Assembly: GCA_003112755.1 (NCBI GenBank)
Contig: BFBT01000001.1
Location: forward strand, 3,348,001 to 3,412,000
DNA from: Lawsonibacter asaccharolyticus
Lineage (GTDB): Bacteria > Bacillota > Clostridia > Oscillospirales > Oscillospiraceae
Length of the DNA stretch: 64,000 nucleotides
Reading direction: 5' to 3'
This document shows positions 8,127 through 36,360 of this stretch, piece after piece. The position numbers and the translations under genes were made by a program. The notes beneath the pieces are model-generated. The model saw only the letters and a list, made by a program, of their open reading frames with translations. It did no database searches and was not told where the DNA came from. The stretch's first letter is position 1. Each line of letters opens with the position of its first letter.

Positions 8127-8142
8127 AAATGTGTATCCGCTC

Positions 8143-8170
8143 TTGATTTCTCTGCAAAAATGATTAGAAT
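8143..8170 (+). promoter_or_regulatory. possible internal promoter before the PfkB kinase gene
   Basis: TTGATT at 8143-8148 and TAGAAT at 8165-8170 with 16-base spacing, in an AT-rich 91-base gap. It would give separate transcription of the kinase, SIS and mutarotase genes. Confidence 0.4.
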
Positions 8171-16550: not shown

Positions 16551-17762
16551 TTAATTTTCCTCCAGAGATGCCAGATATTCTTTTACTCTGCCATAATAGA
16601 TGCGCAGGAACTTGTTGGCGCCGGCTGTCATGTAAACCAGATAGGGTTTGCCCTCGGCTCGTTTCTTGTCCATGAAACGGTATACCGGGTCATCCTGGGG
16701 CTGTGTTTTCAGTAGGCAGTCCATAACCAGGAATAAGGCGCGGCGCAGCTCCGGCGGCCCGCTTTTGGAAACCCTTGTGCTCTTAGCCTCGTGAGTGCCG
16801 GACTGGTCAGCGCCAGGGTCAACGCCCGCAAAAGCGGTAATGGCGTTTCGGTGGGTAAACCGGGCCACATCCCCAAGCTCCGCCATAAGCTGAGGGCCGA
16901 GAGAATCGCCTACACCGTGCATGGCCATGACCACAGGGTATTCCGGGAGCTGGGCTGCCAGGGCCTGCATTTCAGCCTTGAGCCGTTCCAGAGAGGCAGA
17001 GACGGCGTTCAGCGCATCAATGGCCTGCCGGACCATGGTTTTGGTCAGAGCGTCCTTGGGGAGCATGGCAATCAGGTCCTGTGCTCCGGTGTGGACCTCA
17101 ACGGCTTTGCTCTGGCTGAAGTTGTAGCCATGCCGTTTACACCACTTACGGTAACGCTCGGCAAAGGCAGTGAGGCTCATGTTTCGCACACAGTCCACAT
17201 GCCAAAAGGCCGTGGCAAAGTCCACCCACTTCTGGCTGCCGTCCTCACGGACAGGGCTGTCAAATAGGGCGTTGACGCCGGGATAGGTCTGGTCAAGAAG
17301 GGCGATGAGGTTGTTTTTCATCATCGTCTTAGTCTTAGCGTATAGACTCTGCTGCCGGTTCAGCGTTTTCAGTTGCATTCGAATCGTATCCATGGGTGTA
17401 TGTTGGCGCAATTCTGCCCAGTTGTCAAGCCCATAGCGGGCAATCTTCCGGGCATCTGCCTTGTCTGTTTTCACTTTTCGCAGGGTGTTGTTCCCGTAGT
17501 CTTTGATAAGCTTCGGATTGACTGCGCTGACAAAGACGCCCTCCTCATGAAGAAAACGGGCTACCGGCTCATAGTACCGTCCGGTATGCTCCATGACTAC
17601 TCGTGTCTCACCGTCCAGGCTTTTCAAGTAGTCTGCCAGCTCCTTGAGTTCACTGCCGGTGTGACCAATAGAAAATGGTTTTGCTACCACTTCTCCAAAA
17701 GGGCGGAGAACGGATACCATGCTCTTTCCTTTGGAAACATCGATCCCTGCCACATTGTTCAT
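16551..17762 (-). CDS. IS110-family transposase (DEDD recombinase)
   Basis: A 403-residue transposase. The N-terminal RuvC-like domain shows GIDVSKGK (first Asp, residue 8), VVMEHTGRYYEP (Glu near 60) and KTDKADARKIARYG (Asp pair near 103). The C-terminal Tnp20 domain shows HGVGDSLGPQLMAELGD, AFAGVDPGADQSG with the expected catalytic serine, and VSKSGPPELRRAL. The gene is full length and appears intact. Recombinases of this family are guided by a structured RNA from the element's own flank. GAGGAG precedes the ATG. Confidence 0.93.
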   Translation of the reverse strand: MNNVAGIDVSKGKSMVSVLRPFGEVVAKPFSIGHTGSELKELADYLKSLDGETRVVMEHTGRYYEPVARFLHEEGVFVSAVNPKLIKDYGNNTLRKVKTDKADARKIARYGLDNWAELRQHTPMDTIRMQLKTLNRQQSLYAKTKTMMKNNLIALLDQTYPGVNALFDSPVREDGSQKWVDFATAFWHVDCVRNMSLTAFAERYRKWCKRHGYNFSQSKAVEVHTGAQDLIAMLPKDALTKTMVRQAIDALNAVSASLERLKAEMQALAAQLPEYPVVMAMHGVGDSLGPQLMAELGDVARFTHRNAITAFAGVDPGADQSGTHEAKSTRVSKSGPPELRRALFLVMDCLLKTQPQDDPVYRFMDKKRAEGKPYLVYMTAGANKFLRIYYGRVKEYLASLEEN

Positions 17763-17884
17763 ATTGATCGCTCCTCATCATGGATTTGTTTTGGCGACCA
17801 GCCATTCCACCATTGCCGATCCAATCTATTTGATGACACGGGCGCACCAAGGAGGTGGCTCAACCTGCATAAATCGAACGCTGC

Positions 17885-28473: not shown

Positions 28474-29415
28474 ATGGACCTGTTTCAGTTGAAATGCTTT
28501 GTCAATGTGGTGGATCAGCGGAGCTTTACAAAGGCCGCCTTTGAGGTCTCCAGCTCCCAGTCCGCCCTGTCCAAGCAGATCAGCAAGCTGGAGGATGAGC
28601 TGAACGTCCGTCTGTTTGACCGCAGCCGCCGGGTGGTGACGCTGACGCCCGCAGGCCGGGAGTTCGAGCCCCACGCCCGAAAGCTGCTGGCCGACTATGA
28701 CGAGATGATGGCCTCCATCAAGCGGTTCTCCAACAGCGGGCATCTGCACATCGGCAGTGTGGACCACATGGGCCGGGTGGGGCTGACTACCCCCATCTCC
28801 ACCTTTTTGAAGCAGTATCCCGACGGCGGCGTCACCATCGACATCGAGCGGGGGACCTCCCTGGGGGTGATGGACCAGCTGGTTGCGGGAAAGCTGGATA
28901 TGGCCTTCATCGCCCACATCATCTCCCCCTTTTCCAAGGCGTCCAACATCGACGCCTATCAGCTGGACCACTACCGCCTCTATACCCTGGTGGTGGACAA
29001 CTACCACGCCATCGTCAGCCGCCGCCATCGGTTCGCCGGGCTGGATGTGGTCACCTGGCAGGATCTGGCGGAGGAAAAGCTGGTCATTCTGGACAAGAGC
29101 TACGGTCTCAATGCCATCATCCGGGAATCCTTCCGCCAGTGCGGCCTGCGGCCCAACATCGCCTTCGAGTGCGACCAGGTGGACGCCATCCTGGGGATGG
29201 TGGAGGGAAATTTCGGGATCTCCATCCTCTCCAAGCGCATTGCCGCCACCCAGTATGACGTGGAGGCCATCCCCATCGACCCGCCCATCTCCCGCAACAC
29301 CGTGCTGGTGGTCCCCAAGGAGGTGGAGGCCCGCCAGCGGCTGGCCGGCGGCTTTGTCCGCCACATCGTGGATTATTACAGGGACAACACCCCCGGCCCC
29401 TGCGGGGAGCCGTAG
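28474..29415 (+). CDS. LysR family transcriptional regulator (copy 2)
   Basis: A 313-residue regulator with the N-terminal winged helix (MDLFQLKCFVNVVDQRSFTK, then SSSQSALSKQISKLEDELN as the recognition segment) and a periplasmic-binding-like effector domain. The start at 28474 gives the standard LysR N terminus; the frame extends 69 codons upstream through the promoter and operator region, which is non-coding. Divergent from the second FAD oxidoreductase/SLC13 operon, which it probably controls. A hairpin at 29451-29495 ends the gene. Confidence 0.88.
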   Translation: MDLFQLKCFVNVVDQRSFTKAAFEVSSSQSALSKQISKLEDELNVRLFDRSRRVVTLTPAGREFEPHARKLLADYDEMMASIKRFSNSGHLHIGSVDHMGRVGLTTPISTFLKQYPDGGVTIDIERGTSLGVMDQLVAGKLDMAFIAHIISPFSKASNIDAYQLDHYRLYTLVVDNYHAIVSRRHRFAGLDVVTWQDLAEEKLVILDKSYGLNAIIRESFRQCGLRPNIAFECDQVDAILGMVEGNFGISILSKRIAATQYDVEAIPIDPPISRNTVLVVPKEVEARQRLAGGFVRHIVDYYRDNTPGPCGEP

Positions 29416-29450
29416 CCTCCGCCCTCCGCGCCCGGGCGGTTCCCGGCATT

Positions 29451-29495
29451 CTCCCCCCTCGCGCACTGTCCGTCGGACGGAGCGCGAGGGGGGAG
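29451..29495 (+). terminator. stem-loop ending the second LysR gene
   Basis: A perfect 14-base inverted repeat (CTCCCCCCTCGCGC and complement) with a 17-base loop, followed by CTTTCT. It lies just before the vanR promoter. Confidence 0.6.
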
Positions 29496-29516
29496 CTTTC
29501 TGTCCGGCCCTGCCTC

Positions 29517-29545
29517 TCGACAGGGCCTCCTCCCCGTGGTACAAT
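29517..29545 (+). promoter_or_regulatory. promoter of the vanR-vanS operon
   Basis: TCGACA at 29517-29522 and TACAAT at 29540-29545 with 17-base spacing, about 33 bases before the vanR ATG. Confidence 0.6.
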
Positions 29546-29577
29546 GGACAAAACCACAAAGGAGACTGTCCCGGGAC

Positions 29578-30273
29578 ATGGAGACAAACATTTTGATCGT
29601 AGACGACGAGGCCGCCATCGCCGACCTGGTGGAGGTCTATCTGAAAAATGAGGGCTACACCGTCCACAAGTTCGGCCGCGCGGGGGACGCCCTGGCCTGT
29701 GTGGCCTCCACGCCGCTTGACCTGGCCATCCTGGATGTGATGCTCCCGGATATGGACGGCTTCACCCTGTGCCAGAAGATCCGGGAGGCGCACCTGTTCC
29801 CCATCCTGATGCTCACTGCCAGGGTGGAGGACATGGACAAGATCATGGGGCTGACCCTGGGGGCGGACGACTACCTCACCAAGCCCTTCAATCCTCTGGA
29901 GCTGGTGGCCCGGGTCAAGACCCAGCTCCGGCGGTACACCCGGTACAACCAGGGCGGCCAGCCGGGGGGAGAGGCGCAGGAGCACGACTTCCGGGGGCTC
30001 CAGATCTCCCGGGCCACCCACAAGTGCGTGCTGTTCGGCGAGGAGCTCCCCCTGACCCCCCTGGAATTTTCCATCCTATGGTACCTGTGCCAGCACCGGG
30101 GGCAGGTGGTGTCCAGCGAGGAGCTGTTCGAGTCGGTGTGGGGAGAGAAGTATATGGACAGCAACAACACCGTCATGTCCCACATCGCCCGCCTGCGGGA
30201 GAAGATGCACGAACCCAGCCGAAAGCCGAAATTCATCAAGACTGTGTGGGGGGTGGGCTACACCATTGAGTAA
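29578..30273 (+). CDS. vanR: VanR-like OmpR-family response regulator
   Basis: A 231-residue regulator. The receiver domain has the acidic pair at residues 9-10 (IVDDE), the phosphoacceptor Asp53 in LAILDVMLPD, and the conserved lysine in DYLTKPF. The C-terminal winged helix (about 135-230) ends with TVWGVGYTIE. Sequence and context match VanR of vanG-type clusters; it would bind promoters of the resistance genes when phosphorylated by VanS. AAAGGAG precedes the ATG at slightly long spacing. The gene overlaps vanS by 8 bases. Confidence 0.88.
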   Translation: METNILIVDDEAAIADLVEVYLKNEGYTVHKFGRAGDALACVASTPLDLAILDVMLPDMDGFTLCQKIREAHLFPILMLTARVEDMDKIMGLTLGADDYLTKPFNPLELVARVKTQLRRYTRYNQGGQPGGEAQEHDFRGLQISRATHKCVLFGEELPLTPLEFSILWYLCQHRGQVVSSEELFESVWGEKYMDSNNTVMSHIARLREKMHEPSRKPKFIKTVWGVGYTIE

Positions 30274-31420
30274 GGAACGCAAGCCCCGTCTGGCGCAGCG
30301 GCTCCAGACAGACCGTGGGCTCTACCGCGCCCTCCAGCGCTGGGGGTATTATCTGCTGGCCCTGATGGCCTGGGTGACCGTGGTGCTGGCGGTCTCCGCC
30401 CTGGGGGTCCTGGTGTGCAGCCGCCTTACCTGGTATGAGACCGACCCTCTCTACCACCTGCTCCTGTGGGTCCGGGACTACTACTTCTTCGTCTGCATAG
30501 CGGTGGTCCTGCTGGGCTGGGTGGTCATCAGCTGGCACTTCATCTCCCGCCCAGTCCGCCAGCTGGATGCGCTGATCGGCGCCTCCGCCCAGCTCACCCG
30601 TCCCACGGAGGAGCCCATCCGCCTGCCCGCCTCCATGAAGAGCGTGGAGGACCAGCTGAACCTGGCCCGGGAGGAGGCCCTGCGTGCCCAGCGGGCCGCC
30701 CGGGAGGCGGAACAGCGGAAAAACGACCTGGTGGTCTATCTGGCCCACGACCTGAAGACCCCCCTCACCAGCGTCATCGGCTATCTGACACTGCTCCGTG
30801 ACGAGCCCCAGCTCTCCCCGGAGCTGCGCGCCCGCTACACCGGCATCGCCCTGGACAAGGCGGAGCGTCTGGAGGAGCTCATCAACGAATTCTTTGAGAT
30901 CACCCGCTTCAACCTCAGCCATCTGGAGCTGGAGAAGCAGCCCGTGGACCTGTGCCGGATGCTCCAGCAGGTGGTCAGCGAGTTCGCCCCCATGCTGGGG
31001 GAGCGGGACCTGACCTGCGCCCTGGAGCTTCCCCCCAGCCTGGAATATGACTGCGACCCGGACAAGCTGGCCCGGGTGTTTGACAACCTGCTCCGCAACG
31101 CCTGCCATTACAGCACTCCCGGCAGCGTGGTCCGCATCTCCGGCGGGGAGGAGGGGGATTCCATTGTCCTCAGGTTCCTCAACTCCGGGCGGACCATCCC
31201 CCCGGAGAAGCTGGCGCGCATCTTTGACCAGTTCTTCCGCCTGGACAGCTCCCGCGCCACCCGGACGGGGGGCGCGGGCCTTGGCTTGGCCATAGCCAAG
31301 GAGATCCTGACTCTCCACGGCGGGACCATCACCGCCTGGAGCCGGGAGGATCAGGTCTGCTTCCAGGTGACGCTGCCCCGGGGCGGACGGCGGGAGGAGG
31401 GTCCAGCCCGTGAGCCATGA
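30266..31420 (+). CDS. vanS: VanS-like sensor histidine kinase
   Basis: A 384-residue membrane kinase. Two helices (about 30-52 and 75-95) enclose only a short outside loop of about 22 residues, as in VanS proteins of the VanG/VanB-independent, short-sensor kind. A HAMP-like linker leads to the H box with His161 in AHDLKTPLTSVIGYL, followed by N (NLLRNACHYS) and G (GGAGLGLAIAKEI) boxes. It starts at TTG inside the end of vanR, so the two are translationally coupled. It would sense glycopeptide or lipid II stress. Confidence 0.87.
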   Translation: MSKERKPRLAQRLQTDRGLYRALQRWGYYLLALMAWVTVVLAVSALGVLVCSRLTWYETDPLYHLLLWVRDYYFFVCIAVVLLGWVVISWHFISRPVRQLDALIGASAQLTRPTEEPIRLPASMKSVEDQLNLAREEALRAQRAAREAEQRKNDLVVYLAHDLKTPLTSVIGYLTLLRDEPQLSPELRARYTGIALDKAERLEELINEFFEITRFNLSHLELEKQPVDLCRMLQQVVSEFAPMLGERDLTCALELPPSLEYDCDPDKLARVFDNLLRNACHYSTPGSVVRISGGEEGDSIVLRFLNSGRTIPPEKLARIFDQFFRLDSSRATRTGGAGLGLAIAKEILTLHGGTITAWSREDQVCFQVTLPRGGRREEGPAREP

Positions 31421-32147
31421 CGCCGCCCCCCTGTTCGCAGGCTGGGAGAAGGGGATGATCCTCTCCTGTCTCCAGGGGCACATGGGCCAGGTGCGCACCG
31501 GGGGCGGGCATCCGCCGGAGAGCGCCCTGTGCGCCATCGGAGATTTCTGCTTTTTCGCCGGCCGGCCGGACCCGGCCCTGGTGCGGCAGGCCGACCGGCC
31601 CCTGCTGGTCCCCCGGACCGGGGACTGGGCCCCCGTGATCCGGGCGGTGTGGGGCCGCCGTGCCGTCCCCTTCCTCCGCTATGCCCTCTGTGGGGCCCCG
31701 GAGGACTTTGACCGGGACCGGCTGGCCGCCTTCGCCGCCGCCCTGCCCCCAGGCTTCTCCCTCTCCCCCATTCTGGCCGGGCACTATCCCCTGCTGACGG
31801 CCCAGGACTGGTCCCGGGACCTGTGCGGCAATTTCCGGGACGGTCCCGACTTCGCCCGGCGTGGGCTGGGGGTCATCGCTCTTCGGGACGGGGTCCCCGC
31901 GGCCGGCGCCTCCTCCTACGCCGTCTGGGACGGCGGCATCGAGATCCAGATCGACACCCGGCCGGACCTGCGCCGCCGGGGGCTGGCCCTGTCCTGCGGC
32001 GCCCGGCTGATCCTGACCTGCCTGGACCAGGGGCTCCTCCCCTCCTGGGACGCCCACGACCGGCGCTCCGCCGCCCTGGCGGAGAAGCTGGGCTACCGCC
32101 TGGACCGCCCCTACCCCGCCTATCTTCTGGACCAGACCGGTCCGTAA
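31410..32147 (+). CDS. GNAT-family acetyltransferase in the van cluster
   Basis: A 245-residue protein of the GNAT_acetyltran type: a divergent N-terminal half and a C-terminal acetyl-CoA fold with DTRPDLRRRGLALSCGARLI (the RxxGxG/A pyrophosphate loop reads RRRGLA) and a final WDAHDRRSAALAEKLGY segment. It starts at GTG within the end of vanS, so it is translated with the two-component system. No GNAT belongs to the known vanG operon core, so its job in resistance, if any, is unknown. Confidence 0.78.
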   Translation: MSHDAAPLFAGWEKGMILSCLQGHMGQVRTGGGHPPESALCAIGDFCFFAGRPDPALVRQADRPLLVPRTGDWAPVIRAVWGRRAVPFLRYALCGAPEDFDRDRLAAFAAALPPGFSLSPILAGHYPLLTAQDWSRDLCGNFRDGPDFARRGLGVIALRDGVPAAGASSYAVWDGGIEIQIDTRPDLRRRGLALSCGARLILTCLDQGLLPSWDAHDRRSAALAEKLGYRLDRPYPAYLLDQTGP

Positions 32148-32172
32148 GAAAATCGCAAGATTTTCTTACGGA
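32141..32172 (+). terminator. 14-bp stem-loop overlapping the GNAT stop codon
   Basis: TCCGTAAGAAAATC and its perfect complement surround a GCAA tetraloop; the TAA stop codon lies in the left arm. It may block read-through from the regulatory operon or serve as a binding site. A TATCAT at 32176 follows and could be the -10 of a vanG promoter. Confidence 0.55.
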
Positions 32173-32208
32173 TCTTATCATACTTTCGCAGGAAAGACTC
32201 CAAGCAAG

Positions 32209-32259
32209 GTGCGCCCCCCTCTGATACCATAGGGTCATCGGAGGGGGACGCGCTTTTTT
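32209..32259 (+). terminator. intrinsic terminator/attenuator just upstream of vanG
   Basis: A long GC stem (GTGCGCCCCCC-type arm at 32209 pairing with GGGGGACGCGC) ends in six T residues at 32254-32259, only 42 bases before the vanG ATG. No convincing promoter is seen between the terminator and vanG. Confidence 0.7.
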
Positions 32260-32300
32260 CTGGCCTGTCCCCTCCCCCACACAGAAGGAGTTGACAGAAC

Positions 32301-33341
32301 ATGAAACAGATCCTGGTGCTGTTCGGCGGGTGTTCCCCCGAGTACAGCGTCTCTCTGGCCTCCGCCTATGGGGTGCTCACCCATATGGACCGGAGCCTGT
32401 ATCAGCCCATCCCTGTGGGCATCACCCAGGAGGGGGCCTGGCGCTGGTACGGCGGGGCGCTGGAGGCCATTCCGGAGGACCGCTGGCAGGAGGAGCCCGC
32501 CTGCCTCCCCTGCACCCTGCGGCTGGACCGGGGCGGGGCCGCCCTGCTCCTGCTGGACGGCTCCGGCCGGACCCTGGCCTTTGACGGGGCCTTCCCCCTG
32601 ATCCACGGCAGCAACGGGGAGGACGGCACCCTTCAGGGGCTCTTTGAGCTGGCCGGGGTCCCCCTCATCGGCTGCGGCACCCTGTCCAGCGCCCTGTGCA
32701 TGGACAAGGACCGCTCCCACAAGCTGGCCGCCCTGGCCGGGGTCCCCAGCCCCAGAGGGATCGTGCTGGAGCCCGGCTTCTCTCCCGCGGAACTGCGCCG
32801 GGGGGCGGAGGCGGTGGGCTTCCCCCTCTTTGTCAAGCCGGTCCGGGCGGGCTCCTCCTTCGGCGTGAGCCGGGTGGAGGGGCCGGAGCAGTTGGATGGG
32901 GCGGTGAGGGCCGCGCTGGCCTATGACCGCCGTGTCCTGCTGGAGGAGGCGGTCTCCGGCTTTGAGGTGGGCTGCGCCGTACTGGGCAGCGAAGAACTGA
33001 CAGTGGGCCTGGTGGACGAGATCCAGCTGTCCGGCGGTTTTTTCGACTTTGAGGAGAAGTACACCCTCAAGACCTCCGCCATCCACTGCCCCGCCCGCAT
33101 CCCTCCGGAGGCGGCCGCCCAGGTGCAGGAGGCCGCCCGGACCATCTTCCGCGCCCTGGACTGCCGGGGCTTTGCCCGGGTGGACCTGTTCCTCACCCCG
33201 GAGGGGGCGCTGCTGTTCAACGAGGTCAACACCATCCCCGGCTTCACCCCCCACAGCCGCTATCCCACTATGATGCAGGGCGCCGGCCTGGACTTCACCT
33301 CCCTGGTCAGCCGCATGATCCGGCTGGGGGTGGGAGCATGA
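32301..33341 (+). CDS. vanG: VanG-type D-alanine--D-serine ligase
   Basis: A 346-residue ATP-grasp ligase. The N-terminal LFGGCSPEYSVSLASA, the central FVKPVRAGSSFGVSRV (ATP-binding), the omega-loop region FFDFEEKYTLKTSAIHCPARI, and the C-terminal FARVDLFLTPEG, FNEVNTIPGFTPHSRYP are all present. The EKYTLKTS loop and the SPEYSVSLASA start follow VanG rather than housekeeping Ddl. It would make D-Ala-D-Ser for peptidoglycan precursors with low vancomycin affinity. Neighbouring vanXY and vanT supply the matching peptidase and serine racemase. The substrate choice is inferred from family and context. Confidence 0.9.
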   Translation: MKQILVLFGGCSPEYSVSLASAYGVLTHMDRSLYQPIPVGITQEGAWRWYGGALEAIPEDRWQEEPACLPCTLRLDRGGAALLLLDGSGRTLAFDGAFPLIHGSNGEDGTLQGLFELAGVPLIGCGTLSSALCMDKDRSHKLAALAGVPSPRGIVLEPGFSPAELRRGAEAVGFPLFVKPVRAGSSFGVSRVEGPEQLDGAVRAALAYDRRVLLEEAVSGFEVGCAVLGSEELTVGLVDEIQLSGGFFDFEEKYTLKTSAIHCPARIPPEAAAQVQEAARTIFRALDCRGFARVDLFLTPEGALLFNEVNTIPGFTPHSRYPTMMQGAGLDFTSLVSRMIRLGVGA

Positions 33342-34081
33342 GGCCCCTGCGGCTCCGCCGGGAGCAGACCTGCCAGGGCCCGCTGGTCCTGATCGATCGG
33401 GCACACCCCCTCCAGGAAGGCGCGCCGCCGGAGCTGGTCCCCGTGGACCGGCTCCACCCCCAGGTGCTCCTGGAGCGGCGTGCGGCCCGGCTGCTGGCCG
33501 CCTGCATCCGCTCCGTGGGGGGCGGGCGGACCATCGTCCCCGTCTCCGGCTGGCGGAGCCGGGCGGAGCAGCAGGCCATCTGGGACGACACCCGGGCCCG
33601 GGAGGGGGATGCCTTTACCCGGCAGTACGTGGCCCTTCCGGGGTGCAGCGAGCACCAGACCGGCCTGGCCATCGACCTGGGGGAGGACGTCCCCGATCTT
33701 GACTTTATCCGCCCCAGCTTCCCCGACTCCGGGGCCTGCGGCGCTTTCCGACGGGCAGCGGCCCGGTACGGCTTCCTCCAGCGGTACTGCCGGGAGAAGG
33801 AGGCCCTCACTGGCATCGCCGCTGAGCCCTGGCACTTCCGCTATGTGGGGGCGCCCCACGCCCAGCTGATGGAGGAGCACGGGCTCTGTCTGGAGGAGCA
33901 CGTCCCCTTCCTGGAGGTGTCCCCCCGGCTCTGCCGGCTGGGCAACGGCAGGACCGCCCGGGTGTCCCGACTCCCCTGCCCCAGCGCCGTCCTGGAACTG
34001 GAGCCGCCGGCGGGGTGCTGGCAGCTCTCCGGAGACAACTGCGGCGGGTTCATCCTCACCGTCTGGGAGGGAGAGCCATGA
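33338..34081 (+). CDS. vanXY: VanXY-type D,D-dipeptidase/carboxypeptidase
   Basis: A 247-residue zinc peptidase of the M15 family. Zinc ligands and catalytic residues are His106 and Asp113 (SEHQTGLAID), Glu163 and His166 (EPWHFRYVG). The absence of a signal peptide fits a cytosolic VanXY, which destroys D-Ala-D-Ala and trims terminal D-Ala from precursors. About 70 extra residues at the C terminus follow the catalytic domain. Its ATG overlaps the vanG stop (ATGA), and its own stop overlaps vanT, so the three are translated together. Confidence 0.9.
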   Translation: MRPLRLRREQTCQGPLVLIDRAHPLQEGAPPELVPVDRLHPQVLLERRAARLLAACIRSVGGGRTIVPVSGWRSRAEQQAIWDDTRAREGDAFTRQYVALPGCSEHQTGLAIDLGEDVPDLDFIRPSFPDSGACGAFRRAAARYGFLQRYCREKEALTGIAAEPWHFRYVGAPHAQLMEEHGLCLEEHVPFLEVSPRLCRLGNGRTARVSRLPCPSAVLELEPPAGCWQLSGDNCGGFILTVWEGEP

Positions 34082-36198
34082 GCGCCCGCCGGGATGTCCC
34101 TGTGCTGGACCGCTTCCGCCTGCTGGCGGCGTTCCTGGCGGTGTGCAACCACACCGCCCCTCTGGCCGGACTGGCCCCGGAGGCCGACTTCTGGCTCACC
34201 CGGGTGCTGGCCCGGATCGCGGTCCCTTTTTTCCTCATGGTCAGCGGGTACTTTCTCTCCCGGGACGGCTGGAGGGGCACGGGCAGATTTTTGAAGCGGA
34301 CGCTGACCCTCTACGCCGCCGCAGTTCTGCTCTATCTGCCCCTGAACTGGTACAACGGGGGCTTCTCCCCCCTGGAGTGGCTCAAAAAGCTGCTCATAGA
34401 CGGCACCCTGTACCACCTGTGGTATTTCCCGGCGGTCCTGCTGGGGGTGGTGATCGCCCGCGGCCTGGCCCGGCTGGGGCTGCCCGCCGCCCTGGCGGCT
34501 GCCCTGCTCCTCTACCTGATCGGCCTGGGCGGGGACAGCTACTACGGCCTGACCGCCCAGCTACCCGCCCTGGACGCCCTCTATGGCGGGCTGTTCCGCC
34601 TGTGCTCCTATACCCGGAACGGGCTGTTCCTGGCCCCCCTTTTCCTGCTTCTGGGGGCGGCGGGAGTCCGGCTGGGCCGGGGGATCTCCGCCCTGGGCAC
34701 CCTTCTCTCCCTGGCCGGTATGTCCCTGGAGGCGTTCTGGCTCCGCGCCCAGGGCTGGCCCCGCCACGACAGCATGTATCTTTTCCTCCCCCTGACCATG
34801 CTCTTCCTGTTCTCCCTGCTGCTAAATGGCGGCCGGGGGCAGGACCGGACCGCCCGCAGGCTGTCCCTGCTGATCTACCTCCTCCACCCCTGGAGCATCG
34901 TGCTGGTGCGGGGCGCTGCAAAGCGGACAGGGCTGGAGGCCCTGCTCATCCAGAACAGCCTGGCCCACTTCTGCGCCGTGGCGGCGCTCACCCTGTGCGC
35001 CGCCCTGGTGCTGGACGCCCTGCGCCCCCTCCGCCCCGCCCCCGGCGGCCGGGCCTGGAAGGAGCTGGACCTGGACGCCCTGCGGCACAACGCCCGCACC
35101 CTCCGCTCCGCCCTGTCCCCCGGCTGCACGCTGATGGCGGTGGTCAAAGCGGACGGCTACGGCCACGGGGCGGTGCCGGTGGCCCGCTGCCTGCGGCGGG
35201 ACGGGGTGCGGGCCTTCGGGGTGGCCTGTCTGGCTGAGGGCATCGCCCTTCGGAAGGCCGGGGTGCTGGGCACCATCCTCATTCTGGGCTACACCCCGCC
35301 CCGTGAGGTCCCCCTCCTCCGCCGCTGGCATCTCACCCAGACGGTGGCCGACGAGGCTCACGGCCGGGCGCTTGCCGCCCAGGGAGGACCCGTCCGGGTC
35401 CACCTGGCCCTGGATACCGGCATGCACCGGCTGGGGCTGCCCGCCGGGGACCGCTTCGCCATCGCCCGGATGTACCGCCTGAAAAACCTGCGCATCGACG
35501 GGGTGTTCTCCCATCTGTGCGTCTCCGACAGCCTGAAAAAAGAGGACATGGACGCGACTCTGGAACAGCTCACCCTGTTCTATGACACGCTGGACTGGAT
35601 GCGCACCCAAAACCTCTCTCCGGGCCGCGTCCACATCCAGGCCAGCTACGGGGTCCTCAATCTGCCGCCCCAGCCATGCGCCTGGGCCCGGGCCGGCATC
35701 GCCCTGTACGGTGTGTACAGTTCCCTCTCCCCGGTCCAGCGCCGCCTGGACCTGAAGCCCGTCCTCTCCCTCCGGGCCCGGGTGGCCTCGGTGCGCACCC
35801 TGCGCCCCGGGGAGCGGGCCGGGTATGGGCTGGCCTTCCAGGCCCGCCAGGAGACCCGGCTTGCAGTGGTCACCATCGGCTACGCCGACGGCCTGCCCCG
35901 CCAGCTGCCCCAGCAGGGCGGGCGTGTGCTGATCCGCGGCGCTTTCTGTCCCATGGCGGGACGGATGTGCATGGACCAGCTGCTGGTGGATGTCACCGCC
36001 CTGCCCGGTGTCCAGGCCGGGGATGTGGTCACCCTCATCGGCCGGGACGGAGCGCAGGAGCTCCGGGCCGAGGAGCTGGCCGCCCGATGCGGCACCATCA
36101 CCAATGAGCTTCTCTCTCGGCTGGGCAGGCGGCTGGAGCTGCAAAAGGTCCCTCGTTCTTCCCAGAGTAGTGGGCGGAGCGCAGAGACGCGGGGATGA
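34078..36198 (+). CDS. vanT: VanT membrane-bound serine/alanine racemase
   Basis: A 706-residue two-domain protein. Residues 1-330 are an acyltransferase-3-like membrane domain with about ten helices (DRFRLLAAFLAVCNHTAPL start); residues 335-700 are an alanine racemase fold with the PLP lysine at 357 (VVKADGYGHG) and the catalytic tyrosine in RAGYGLAF. VanT provides D-serine for the VanG ligase, the membrane part probably taking up L-serine. The length matches known VanT proteins (about 700). Start overlaps the vanXY stop by ATGA. It is the last gene of the cluster. Confidence 0.92.
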   Translation: MSARRDVPVLDRFRLLAAFLAVCNHTAPLAGLAPEADFWLTRVLARIAVPFFLMVSGYFLSRDGWRGTGRFLKRTLTLYAAAVLLYLPLNWYNGGFSPLEWLKKLLIDGTLYHLWYFPAVLLGVVIARGLARLGLPAALAAALLLYLIGLGGDSYYGLTAQLPALDALYGGLFRLCSYTRNGLFLAPLFLLLGAAGVRLGRGISALGTLLSLAGMSLEAFWLRAQGWPRHDSMYLFLPLTMLFLFSLLLNGGRGQDRTARRLSLLIYLLHPWSIVLVRGAAKRTGLEALLIQNSLAHFCAVAALTLCAALVLDALRPLRPAPGGRAWKELDLDALRHNARTLRSALSPGCTLMAVVKADGYGHGAVPVARCLRRDGVRAFGVACLAEGIALRKAGVLGTILILGYTPPREVPLLRRWHLTQTVADEAHGRALAAQGGPVRVHLALDTGMHRLGLPAGDRFAIARMYRLKNLRIDGVFSHLCVSDSLKKEDMDATLEQLTLFYDTLDWMRTQNLSPGRVHIQASYGVLNLPPQPCAWARAGIALYGVYSSLSPVQRRLDLKPVLSLRARVASVRTLRPGERAGYGLAFQARQETRLAVVTIGYADGLPRQLPQQGGRVLIRGAFCPMAGRMCMDQLLVDVTALPGVQAGDVVTLIGRDGAQELRAEELAARCGTITNELLSRLGRRLELQKVPRSSQSSGRSAETRG

Positions 36199-36265: not shown

Positions 36266-36328
36266 GTAGTTCTGATCCCCTGTGAGGACCCCGTCTGTCA
36301 TATGGCGGAGCCGTACTCCCGACGCATC

Positions 36329-36357
36329 AAGGCCAGCGCCATTCAGGCGCTGGCCTT
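36329..36357. terminator. bidirectional stem-loop between vanT and the NUDIX gene
   Basis: A perfect 12-base stem AAGGCCAGCGCC / GGCGCTGGCCTT with a 5-base loop lies between the converging transcripts. Confidence 0.65.
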
Positions 36358-36360
36358 GTC

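What the first reader, a model, noticed from the sequence alone, without database searches (positions are those of the whole stretch)
29517..36198. Compact vanG-type glycopeptide-resistance cluster with an added GNAT gene
vanR, vanS, GNAT, vanG, vanXY and vanT all appear intact with catalytic residues in place (VanR Asp53, VanS His161, VanXY His106/Asp113/Glu163/His166, VanT Lys357). vanY, vanW and vanU of the enterococcal vanG operon are absent. No transposase or integrase flanks it directly and its GC-rich codon use equals the neighbours, so it looks resident in this lineage, as in the vanG-like cluster of Clostridioides difficile. It could be silent or inducible, and such commensal clusters are a plausible source for mobile vanG.
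Basis: partly seen in the sequence, partly recalled or inferred. Interest (0 to 1): 0.75.

Follow-up and report, generated by a model that had tools for sequence, protein, structure and literature searches.

The report
Two-part vancomycin-resistance operon with acetyltransferase
A gut bacterium carries an apparently intact, vancomycin-sensing type of gene set for rebuilding its cell wall, laid out as a sensor operon that includes an antibiotic-acetylating type of enzyme and a response operon whose start signal lies inside a predicted stop signal; related gut bacteria share most of this design, so how they keep such resistance silent until needed can be tested.

Summary
In detail: vanR, vanS, a GNAT gene, vanG, vanXY and vanT are intact at 29578-36198 with every named catalytic residue in place. 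The ligase groups with VanG-like enzymes, not with the genome's own Ddl.

The interpretation needs changing: this is two operons. Operon 1 (vanR-vanS-GNAT) has a consensus-like promoter and no VanR site. Operon 2 (vanG-vanXY-vanT) starts at a predicted promoter with a VanRG-consensus site 83 nt before its -10, which lies in the 5' arm of a terminator-like hairpin. This layout is common among relatives, mostly Oscillospiraceae, and the hairpin covaries.

No GNAT was found beside vanG in 101 relative loci, but in three genomes of the genus vanR-vanS-GNAT is an operon apart from vanG-vanXY-vanT. So the GNAT belongs to the sensor operon. Its best characterised relative by fold and sequence is PamZ, an antibiotic-inactivating N-acetyltransferase; its substrate here is unknown.

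Residency at this site is not supported: neither flank is syntenic in the genus, and total GC exceeds the neighbours'. Termination, induction, D-Ala-D-Ser and resistance are inferred, not shown. Verdict: new variant of a known kind.

The parts
29517..29545 (+). predicted promoter of operon 1 (TCGACA, 17 nt, TACAAT, TG before -10)
   Evidence: 10 of 12 consensus matches; no VanR box within 1 mismatch in 29301-29600
29578..30273 (+). vanR, response regulator (231 aa, D53)
   Evidence: NF033117 386.6 bits over cut-off 350; residue
30266..31420 (+). vanS, sensor kinase (384 aa, H161)
   Evidence: NF033091 380 bits, cut-off 400; tree
31410..32147 (+). GNAT gene (PF12746, PamZ/ZmaR-like fold, 245 aa), GTG start overlapping the vanS stop by 11 nt, stop codon inside the VanR box
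32142..32153 (+). VanR box, exact match to the VanRG consensus YCGTANGAAAWT, 83 nt before the -10
   Evidence: (0 in 100 shuffles); consensus read in PMC4405338
32160..32171 (-). second exact VanR box, mirror of the first (together a 14-nt inverted repeat 32141-32172)
32206..32256 (+). terminator-like hairpin with T run; its 5' arm carries the start of the -10 of the vanG promoter
   Evidence: not listed by the scan, whose loop limit is 8 nt
32225..32230 (+). -10 element TACCAT of the predicted vanG promoter (preceded by TGN); no consensus -35, so not listed by the scan
   Evidence: position relative to the VanR box in aligned relatives
32301..33341 (+). vanG-like D-Ala-D-Ser ligase (346 aa)
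33338..34081 (+). vanXY, D,D-dipeptidase/carboxypeptidase (247 aa)
34078..36198 (+). vanT, membrane-bound serine racemase (706 aa, K357)
36328..36358 (+). terminator-like hairpin after vanT

Best explanation
A VanG-like, D-Ala-D-Ser peptidoglycan-remodelling regulon built from two operons. Operon 1, vanR-vanS-GNAT, is read from a promoter without a VanR site, so sensor, regulator and acetyltransferase are made together without induction. It runs through the VanR operator and stops at a hairpin terminator. When VanS detects vancomycin it phosphorylates VanR, which binds the box 83 nt upstream of the -10 and recruits polymerase to a promoter that has no consensus -35. That promoter's -10 begins in the 5' arm of the terminator, so RNA started there holds only the 3' arm and escapes termination. 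VanG, VanXY and VanT then replace D-Ala-D-Ala by D-Ala-D-Ser. The overlap keeps vanG off except through VanR. The GNAT, a tandem-GNAT protein of the PamZ/ZmaR kind, most likely N-acetylates a small cationic or peptide antibiotic, giving a second, constant protection; less likely it tunes VanR/VanS. Shown by sequence: genes, residues, operator match, hairpin and its covariation, GNAT in the vanRS operon of four genomes. Inferred: VanR binding, start site, termination, vancomycin as signal, D-Ser as substrate, GNAT substrate.
Against: Ligase, VanS and VanXY score under NCBI's curated cut-offs. The generic scan lists neither the vanG promoter nor this hairpin. The hairpin is also kept where vanRS is not upstream (5 of 21 loci; and L179-L181 and L154), so it is not only the end of vanRS and may serve the promoter itself. 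The 43 rows were picked for a hairpin with TAnnnT, which inflates the pairing percentage and makes T25, A26 and T30 invariant by construction; the thresholds were set after the loci had been seen. Of the 61 loci, 23 fail the test. A GNAT clade holding the four vanRS-linked genes was not recovered, though not rejected either (AU p 0.159). Nothing here measures expression or resistance.
Confidence: 0.68

Rival explanations
1. One read-through operon: the hairpin is a weak or inactive terminator, and vanG-vanXY-vanT are transcribed mostly from the vanR promoter, giving constant low resistance.
For: Genes are tightly packed in the same direction; only 153 nt separate GNAT and vanG. The generic terminator scan does not list the hairpin.
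Against: VanR-type box at one distance in 36 of 43 promoters and strong covariation of a hairpin followed by T; operator and hairpin kept where vanG stands alone.
Confidence: 0.12
2. The GNAT is a third regulatory component: it acetylates VanR or VanS, or their signal, and tunes the response, as VanU is a third regulator in E. faecalis vanG (PMC4405338 abstract).
For: It lies in the regulatory, not the effector, operon, overlaps vanS and stays with vanRS when vanG is elsewhere.
Against: Nearest characterised relative acts on an antibiotic; six related GNAT loci of the genus (L165-L170) show no vanR or vanS match within the 1.5 kb held on each side, and 20 other genomes of the 300 in the family search have a relative.
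Confidence: 0.2
3. The GNAT is a passenger: a gene that happened to land behind vanS and is carried along without function in resistance.
For: No other vanG locus looked at has it beside vanG: 0 of 101; GNAT clade with the other vanRS-linked copies not recovered.
Against: vanS-GNAT overlap at about the same point in four genomes, with vanR at 85% and GNAT at 71-72% identity; the window's GNAT cluster holds 441 member sequences and one related cluster 1201, though members may repeat one strain.
Confidence: 0.3
4. The ligase is a second housekeeping D-Ala-D-Ala ligase, not a resistance enzyme.
For: Score slightly under the VanG cut-off.
Against: The genome has a separate Ddl, 34% identical; tree, D/F/R and EEKYT signature, and the vanXY-vanT partners.
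Confidence: 0.04

Closest known systems
vanG-like cluster of Clostridioides difficile (vanR vanS / vanG vanXY vanT)
   Same: Same genes (order recalled); vanRS thought to be one bicistronic message (PMC11326576 passages).
   Different: Window adds the GNAT to the vanRS operon; the terminator-embedded promoter was not checked in C. difficile.
vanG operon of Enterococcus faecalis BM4518 (vanURS / vanYWGXYT, gene order recalled)
   Same: VanRG operator consensus YCGTANGAAAWT upstream of the effector promoter, whose -35 is poor; regulatory promoter not bound by VanRG (PMC4405338, section 9 and passages).
   Different: No vanU, vanY or vanW here; GNAT instead as third gene of the regulatory operon; a -10 in a hairpin is not mentioned in what I read (the word hairpin has 0 occurrences).
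PamZ (paenilamicin) and ZmaR (zwittermicin A) N-acetyltransferases
   Different: 17% identity; no biosynthetic cluster was noticed among the listed neighbour ORFs (not searched for); substrate unknown.
GNAT genes beside vanHAX in Actinobacteria and Ktedonobacteria
   Same: A GNAT gene co-located with van genes (PMC8698665 and PMC9689679, passages).
   Different: Those are D-Ala-D-Lac clusters; whether their GNATs belong to PF12746 or to the vanRS operon is not said in the passages.

Membership tests
VanG-type D-Ala-D-Ser cluster | Ligase nearest to VanG and apart from Ddl, VanA/B and VanC | tested here: met
   Best model VanG 482.3 bits, but under cut-off 495; best structure 4fu0; tree of 71 rows (no enterococcal VanG row in it)
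VanG-type D-Ala-D-Ser cluster | D-Ser pocket residues (VanG D243, F252, R324; recalled) | tested here: met
   Window D239, F248, R320; own Ddl I/Y/L; VanA and VanB also D/F/R but without EEKY
VanG-type D-Ala-D-Ser cluster | VanXY with zinc and catalytic residues | tested here: met
   scores under both curated cut-offs
VanG-type D-Ala-D-Ser cluster | Membrane-bound serine racemase VanT | tested here: met
   Acyl_transf_3 plus Ala_racemase domains; vanT-G C-terminal model over cut-off, vanT-CELN under it; K357
VanG-type D-Ala-D-Ser cluster | vanU, vanY, vanW as in E. faecalis | tested here: not met
   Gaps of 162 nt before vanR and 153 nt before vanG, overlaps elsewhere, leave no room; relatives were not searched for these genes
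VanG-type D-Ala-D-Ser cluster | D-Ala-D-Ser precursors and raised vancomycin MIC | not testable with these tools
   needs bench work
VanR-activated promoter | Operator matching YCGTANGAAAWT upstream of the promoter | tested here: met
VanR-activated promoter | VanR binding and induction | not testable with these tools
   none
Intrinsic terminator | G+C-rich stem followed by T run, conserved by covariation | tested here: met
   T run uneven in some rows; loop of 11 nt is over the limit of the scan
Intrinsic terminator | Stops transcription | not testable with these tools
   none
PamZ/ZmaR antibiotic N-acetyltransferases | Tandem GNAT fold with sequence relationship | tested here: met
PamZ/ZmaR antibiotic N-acetyltransferases | Acetylates and inactivates an antibiotic | not testable with these tools
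   none

The most novel reading that the evidence does not exclude
Gut Oscillospiraceae control vanG through a conserved terminator-embedded promoter: the -10 sits in the 5' arm of a terminator, so the effector operon cannot be reached by read-through from upstream and fires only through VanR. In one lineage the sensor operon has gained a PamZ-like acetyltransferase and can stand apart from the effector operon, making a two-locus, two-mechanism response (target change plus drug acetylation, or acetylation as a third regulatory input).
Probability: 0.45. Interest if true: 0.65.

Novelty: new variant of a known kind. Interest (0 to 1): 0.5.

Why it matters
VanG-like sets are common in this family of gut bacteria (80 of 300 genomes with a match of at least 45% identity, own included, counted by eye), and I found no account of how theirs are kept quiet. 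A covarying hairpin around the -10 gives a concrete, testable silencing device and could help to tell regulated clusters from decayed ones. A drug-acetylating type of enzyme inside the sensor operon suggests that glycopeptide sensing may be coupled to a second defence. Split vanRS and vanG loci mean that resistance annotation by neighbouring genes can miss complete regulons.

Tried and rejected
Housekeeping ligase: rejected by tree and residues. Local synteny as evidence of long residency: not found; upstream flank DNA gave matches in 34 of 61 genomes, own included, but none over about 140 nt outside the own genome; downstream, two closed genomes (G128, G309) have the transporter and NUDIX genes far apart. 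Phage link: no megablast match in the phage collection (distant search not run). A first operator search with a recalled consensus and 2 mismatches was no better than chance (15 found, 15.8 expected); it was replaced by the published consensus without mismatches. A GNAT clade of vanRS-linked copies: not recovered, not rejected. Enterococcal VanG was not in the trees; C. difficile was not examined. Literature: one paper holds PF12746 (listing only). Listings of searches showed no title or abstract opening on a terminator-embedded vanG promoter or a GNAT in a vanRS operon of the vanG type; this is a limited check of an open-access library. Papers seen: PMC4405338 (passages and section 9), PMC8541618 (passages, of no use), PMC11326576, PMC9054821, PMC8698665, PMC9689679 (passages), PMC11273654 (abstract and outline). 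RNAalifold gave 10 of the 16 pairs that I counted.
Full report
WHAT IS THERE. The window holds vanR, vanS, a GNAT gene, vanG, vanXY and vanT, all open and in one direction, 29578-36198. Scores are just under NCBI's cut-offs for VanG (482.3 of 495) and VanS (380 of 400), and well under for VanXY; VanR and the VanT C-terminal model pass. So this is VanG-like rather than textbook VanG. GC3 is like that of the neighbours, but total GC of five of the six genes (0.670-0.740) is above all eight neighbours (0.531-0.666).

THE LIGASE. The genome has one further ligase match, 34% identical. In a tree of 71 rows the window ligase lies inside the VanG-like set, mostly Oscillospiraceae, away from own and enterococcal Ddl, VanA/VanB and VanC (no enterococcal VanG row was at hand). 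It keeps D239, F248, R320 and the EEKYT loop; own Ddl has I/Y/L (the link of these residues to D-Ser, VanG D243/F252/R324, is recalled). In a 41-row tree with more genomes of the genus it pairs with G308 (88/94); without G308 it paired with Flavonifractor loci L004/L016 (99/97).

SPREAD. A ligase match at E <= 1e-60 is in 123 of 300 family genomes; in 80 of these, own included, it is at least 45% identical (my count by eye). In the genus it is 13 of 64, own included, at E <= 1e-100. DNA of the upstream flank finds only short matches, up to about 140 nt, in other genomes of the genus. Genes of the downstream flank are found, but in the closed genomes G128 and G309 they lie far apart. So there is no sign that the present site is an old shared one. 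A 334-kb record named a plasmid of Subdoligranulum variabile carries vanG-vanXY-vanT at 55% ligase identity; whether that record is a true plasmid I could not check.

TWO OPERONS. In 101 relative loci (L003-L103) no GNAT match over 60 bits lies near vanG; 40 of the named loci have vanS within 1.4 kb upstream of vanG, so the gap itself was seen there. In 22 of 35 promoters with vanS upstream, the vanS stop TAA is the TAA of the VanR box. In the window the GNAT stop takes exactly that slot: box 32142-32153, stop 32145-32147. The box matches the VanRG consensus YCGTANGAAAWT, which I read in PMC4405338 section 9, without mismatch; a mirror copy follows at 32160-32171; 2 in 64 kb, none in 100 shuffles. 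A longer operator pattern occurs once in the genome, here, and in 7 more of 200 family genomes; three of those seven places lie just upstream of vanG. The box lies 83 nt from a -10 in 36 of 43 promoters; 10 of the 43 boxes are exact, 25 have one mismatch, 8 have two or three. In E. faecalis the VanRG sites also lie upstream of a promoter with a poor -35. A generic scan does not list the vanG promoter, which has no consensus -35.

THE HAIRPIN. The -10 begins in the 5' arm of a hairpin, 32206-32256, followed by T. As RNA it folds at -36.4 kcal/mol, z -6. On 43 aligned rows 86.0% of 672 cells pair, against 75.1% in shuffles and 40.3-47.5% for slid partners, with 95 both-side changes against 30.7 in shuffles (0 of 500), 12 pairs so changed against 8.4 (4 of 500), and covariation 0.412 against 0.220 (0 of 500). 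These rows (window and 42 of the 62 named loci L003-L064) were picked for a hairpin with TAnnnT, so the constancy of T25, A26 and T30 means nothing, and the shuffles do not remove relatedness. A count on loci not picked that way, with thresholds set after the loci had been seen, gives 33 of 40 with vanS within 1.4 kb upstream, 5 of 21 without (four of the 21 are enterococcal VanC loci), and 0 of 305 shuffled sequences; L033, cut at vanG, was left out. RNA begun about 7 nt after the -10, as is usual, would hold only the 3' arm. The simplest reading is a terminator for whatever comes from upstream that spares RNA started at its own promoter. Against a purely vanRS-linked role: the hairpin is also found where vanG stands alone (L154, L179, L180, L181). 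The generic scan does not list it because its loop is over the limit.

THE GNAT. In the genus, 20 of 64 genomes, own included, have a match at E <= 1e-15. In G308, G322 and G341 it follows vanS (vanR 85% in the two where it is held whole; vanS 77-78%; GNAT 71-72%), while vanG lies on another contig. The vanS end and the GNAT start overlap at about the same point in all four genomes. In G322 and G341 other sequence, without vanG, follows the GNAT; in G308 the contig ends 130 nt after it, but its vanG lies mid-contig elsewhere. No VanR box within one mismatch lies near these vanRS-GNAT genes (G341's contig starts inside vanS, so its vanR promoter was not seen); a lone overlapping pair in L176 at 8131-8146 is 5 kb away. 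The vanG promoters of the three keep an operator box (exact in L179 and L180, one mismatch in L154) and the hairpin. vanS of the four forms a clade (99/99); the three other genomes are closely alike there and count as one lineage. The GNAT tree does not recover a clade of the vanRS-linked copies, and a test does not reject it (p 0.159). Four other vanG-bearing genus genomes (G317, G304, G302, G352) hold a GNAT at 54-57%, whose neighbours I did not fetch. In further genomes with vanG alone (G335, G358, G359, G362, G363) a vanRS pair, 56-66% in vanS, is elsewhere without a GNAT next to it.

KNOWN AND NEW. The genes match those reported for C. difficile (PMC11326576 passages; order recalled). GNAT genes beside vanHAX are reported in Actinobacteria and Ktedonobacteria (PMC8698665, PMC9689679, passages), so the pairing of van and GNAT is not new as such. 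What I did not find in print, within the searches listed under Tried and rejected, is a GNAT in a vanRS operon of vanG type, a split vanRS/vanG regulon, or a vanG -10 inside a covarying terminator-like hairpin. I rate it a new variant of a known kind.

Noticed in passing
L052:8001-9041 (Oscillibacter valericigenes An411): VanG-like ligase with A/I/C in place of D/F/R and no vanT match found behind vanXY: possibly a decayed or re-purposed cluster.
   Followed up: no
L149 and L179 (G322 vanG): In-frame TAG in vanG of a split regulon; could be decay or a sequencing error. Left as it is.
   Followed up: no
L186 (G363 vanS): the genome search reports one TAA inside the vanS match; vanG of that genome lies elsewhere.
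   Followed up: no
L003, L006, L021, L023, L181: Split van regulons in further genomes: vanG without a close vanRS beside it, a vanRS pair elsewhere in the same genome.
   Followed up: partly
G006:C33, G013:C43, G058:C19, G076:C50: Exact VanR-type operator pattern at places not identified as vanG promoters; possible further VanR targets.
   Followed up: no
window 32141-32172: Perfect 14-nt inverted repeat made of two VanR boxes, -24.2 kcal/mol, z -10; the aligned relatives look by eye like 11-nt spaced direct repeats instead.
   Followed up: partly
window 16554-17774 (-): ORF that looks like an IS110-type transposase by eye, about 12 kb upstream of the cluster.
   Followed up: no
P0002, P0003: GNAT proteins on short contigs, nearly identical to the window copy over about 140 residues and then like P0024: chimeric assembly or recombination.
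   Followed up: no
L159 (OY725857.1): vanG-vanXY-vanT on a 334-kb record called a plasmid of Subdoligranulum variabile, typed non-mobilizable.
   Followed up: partly
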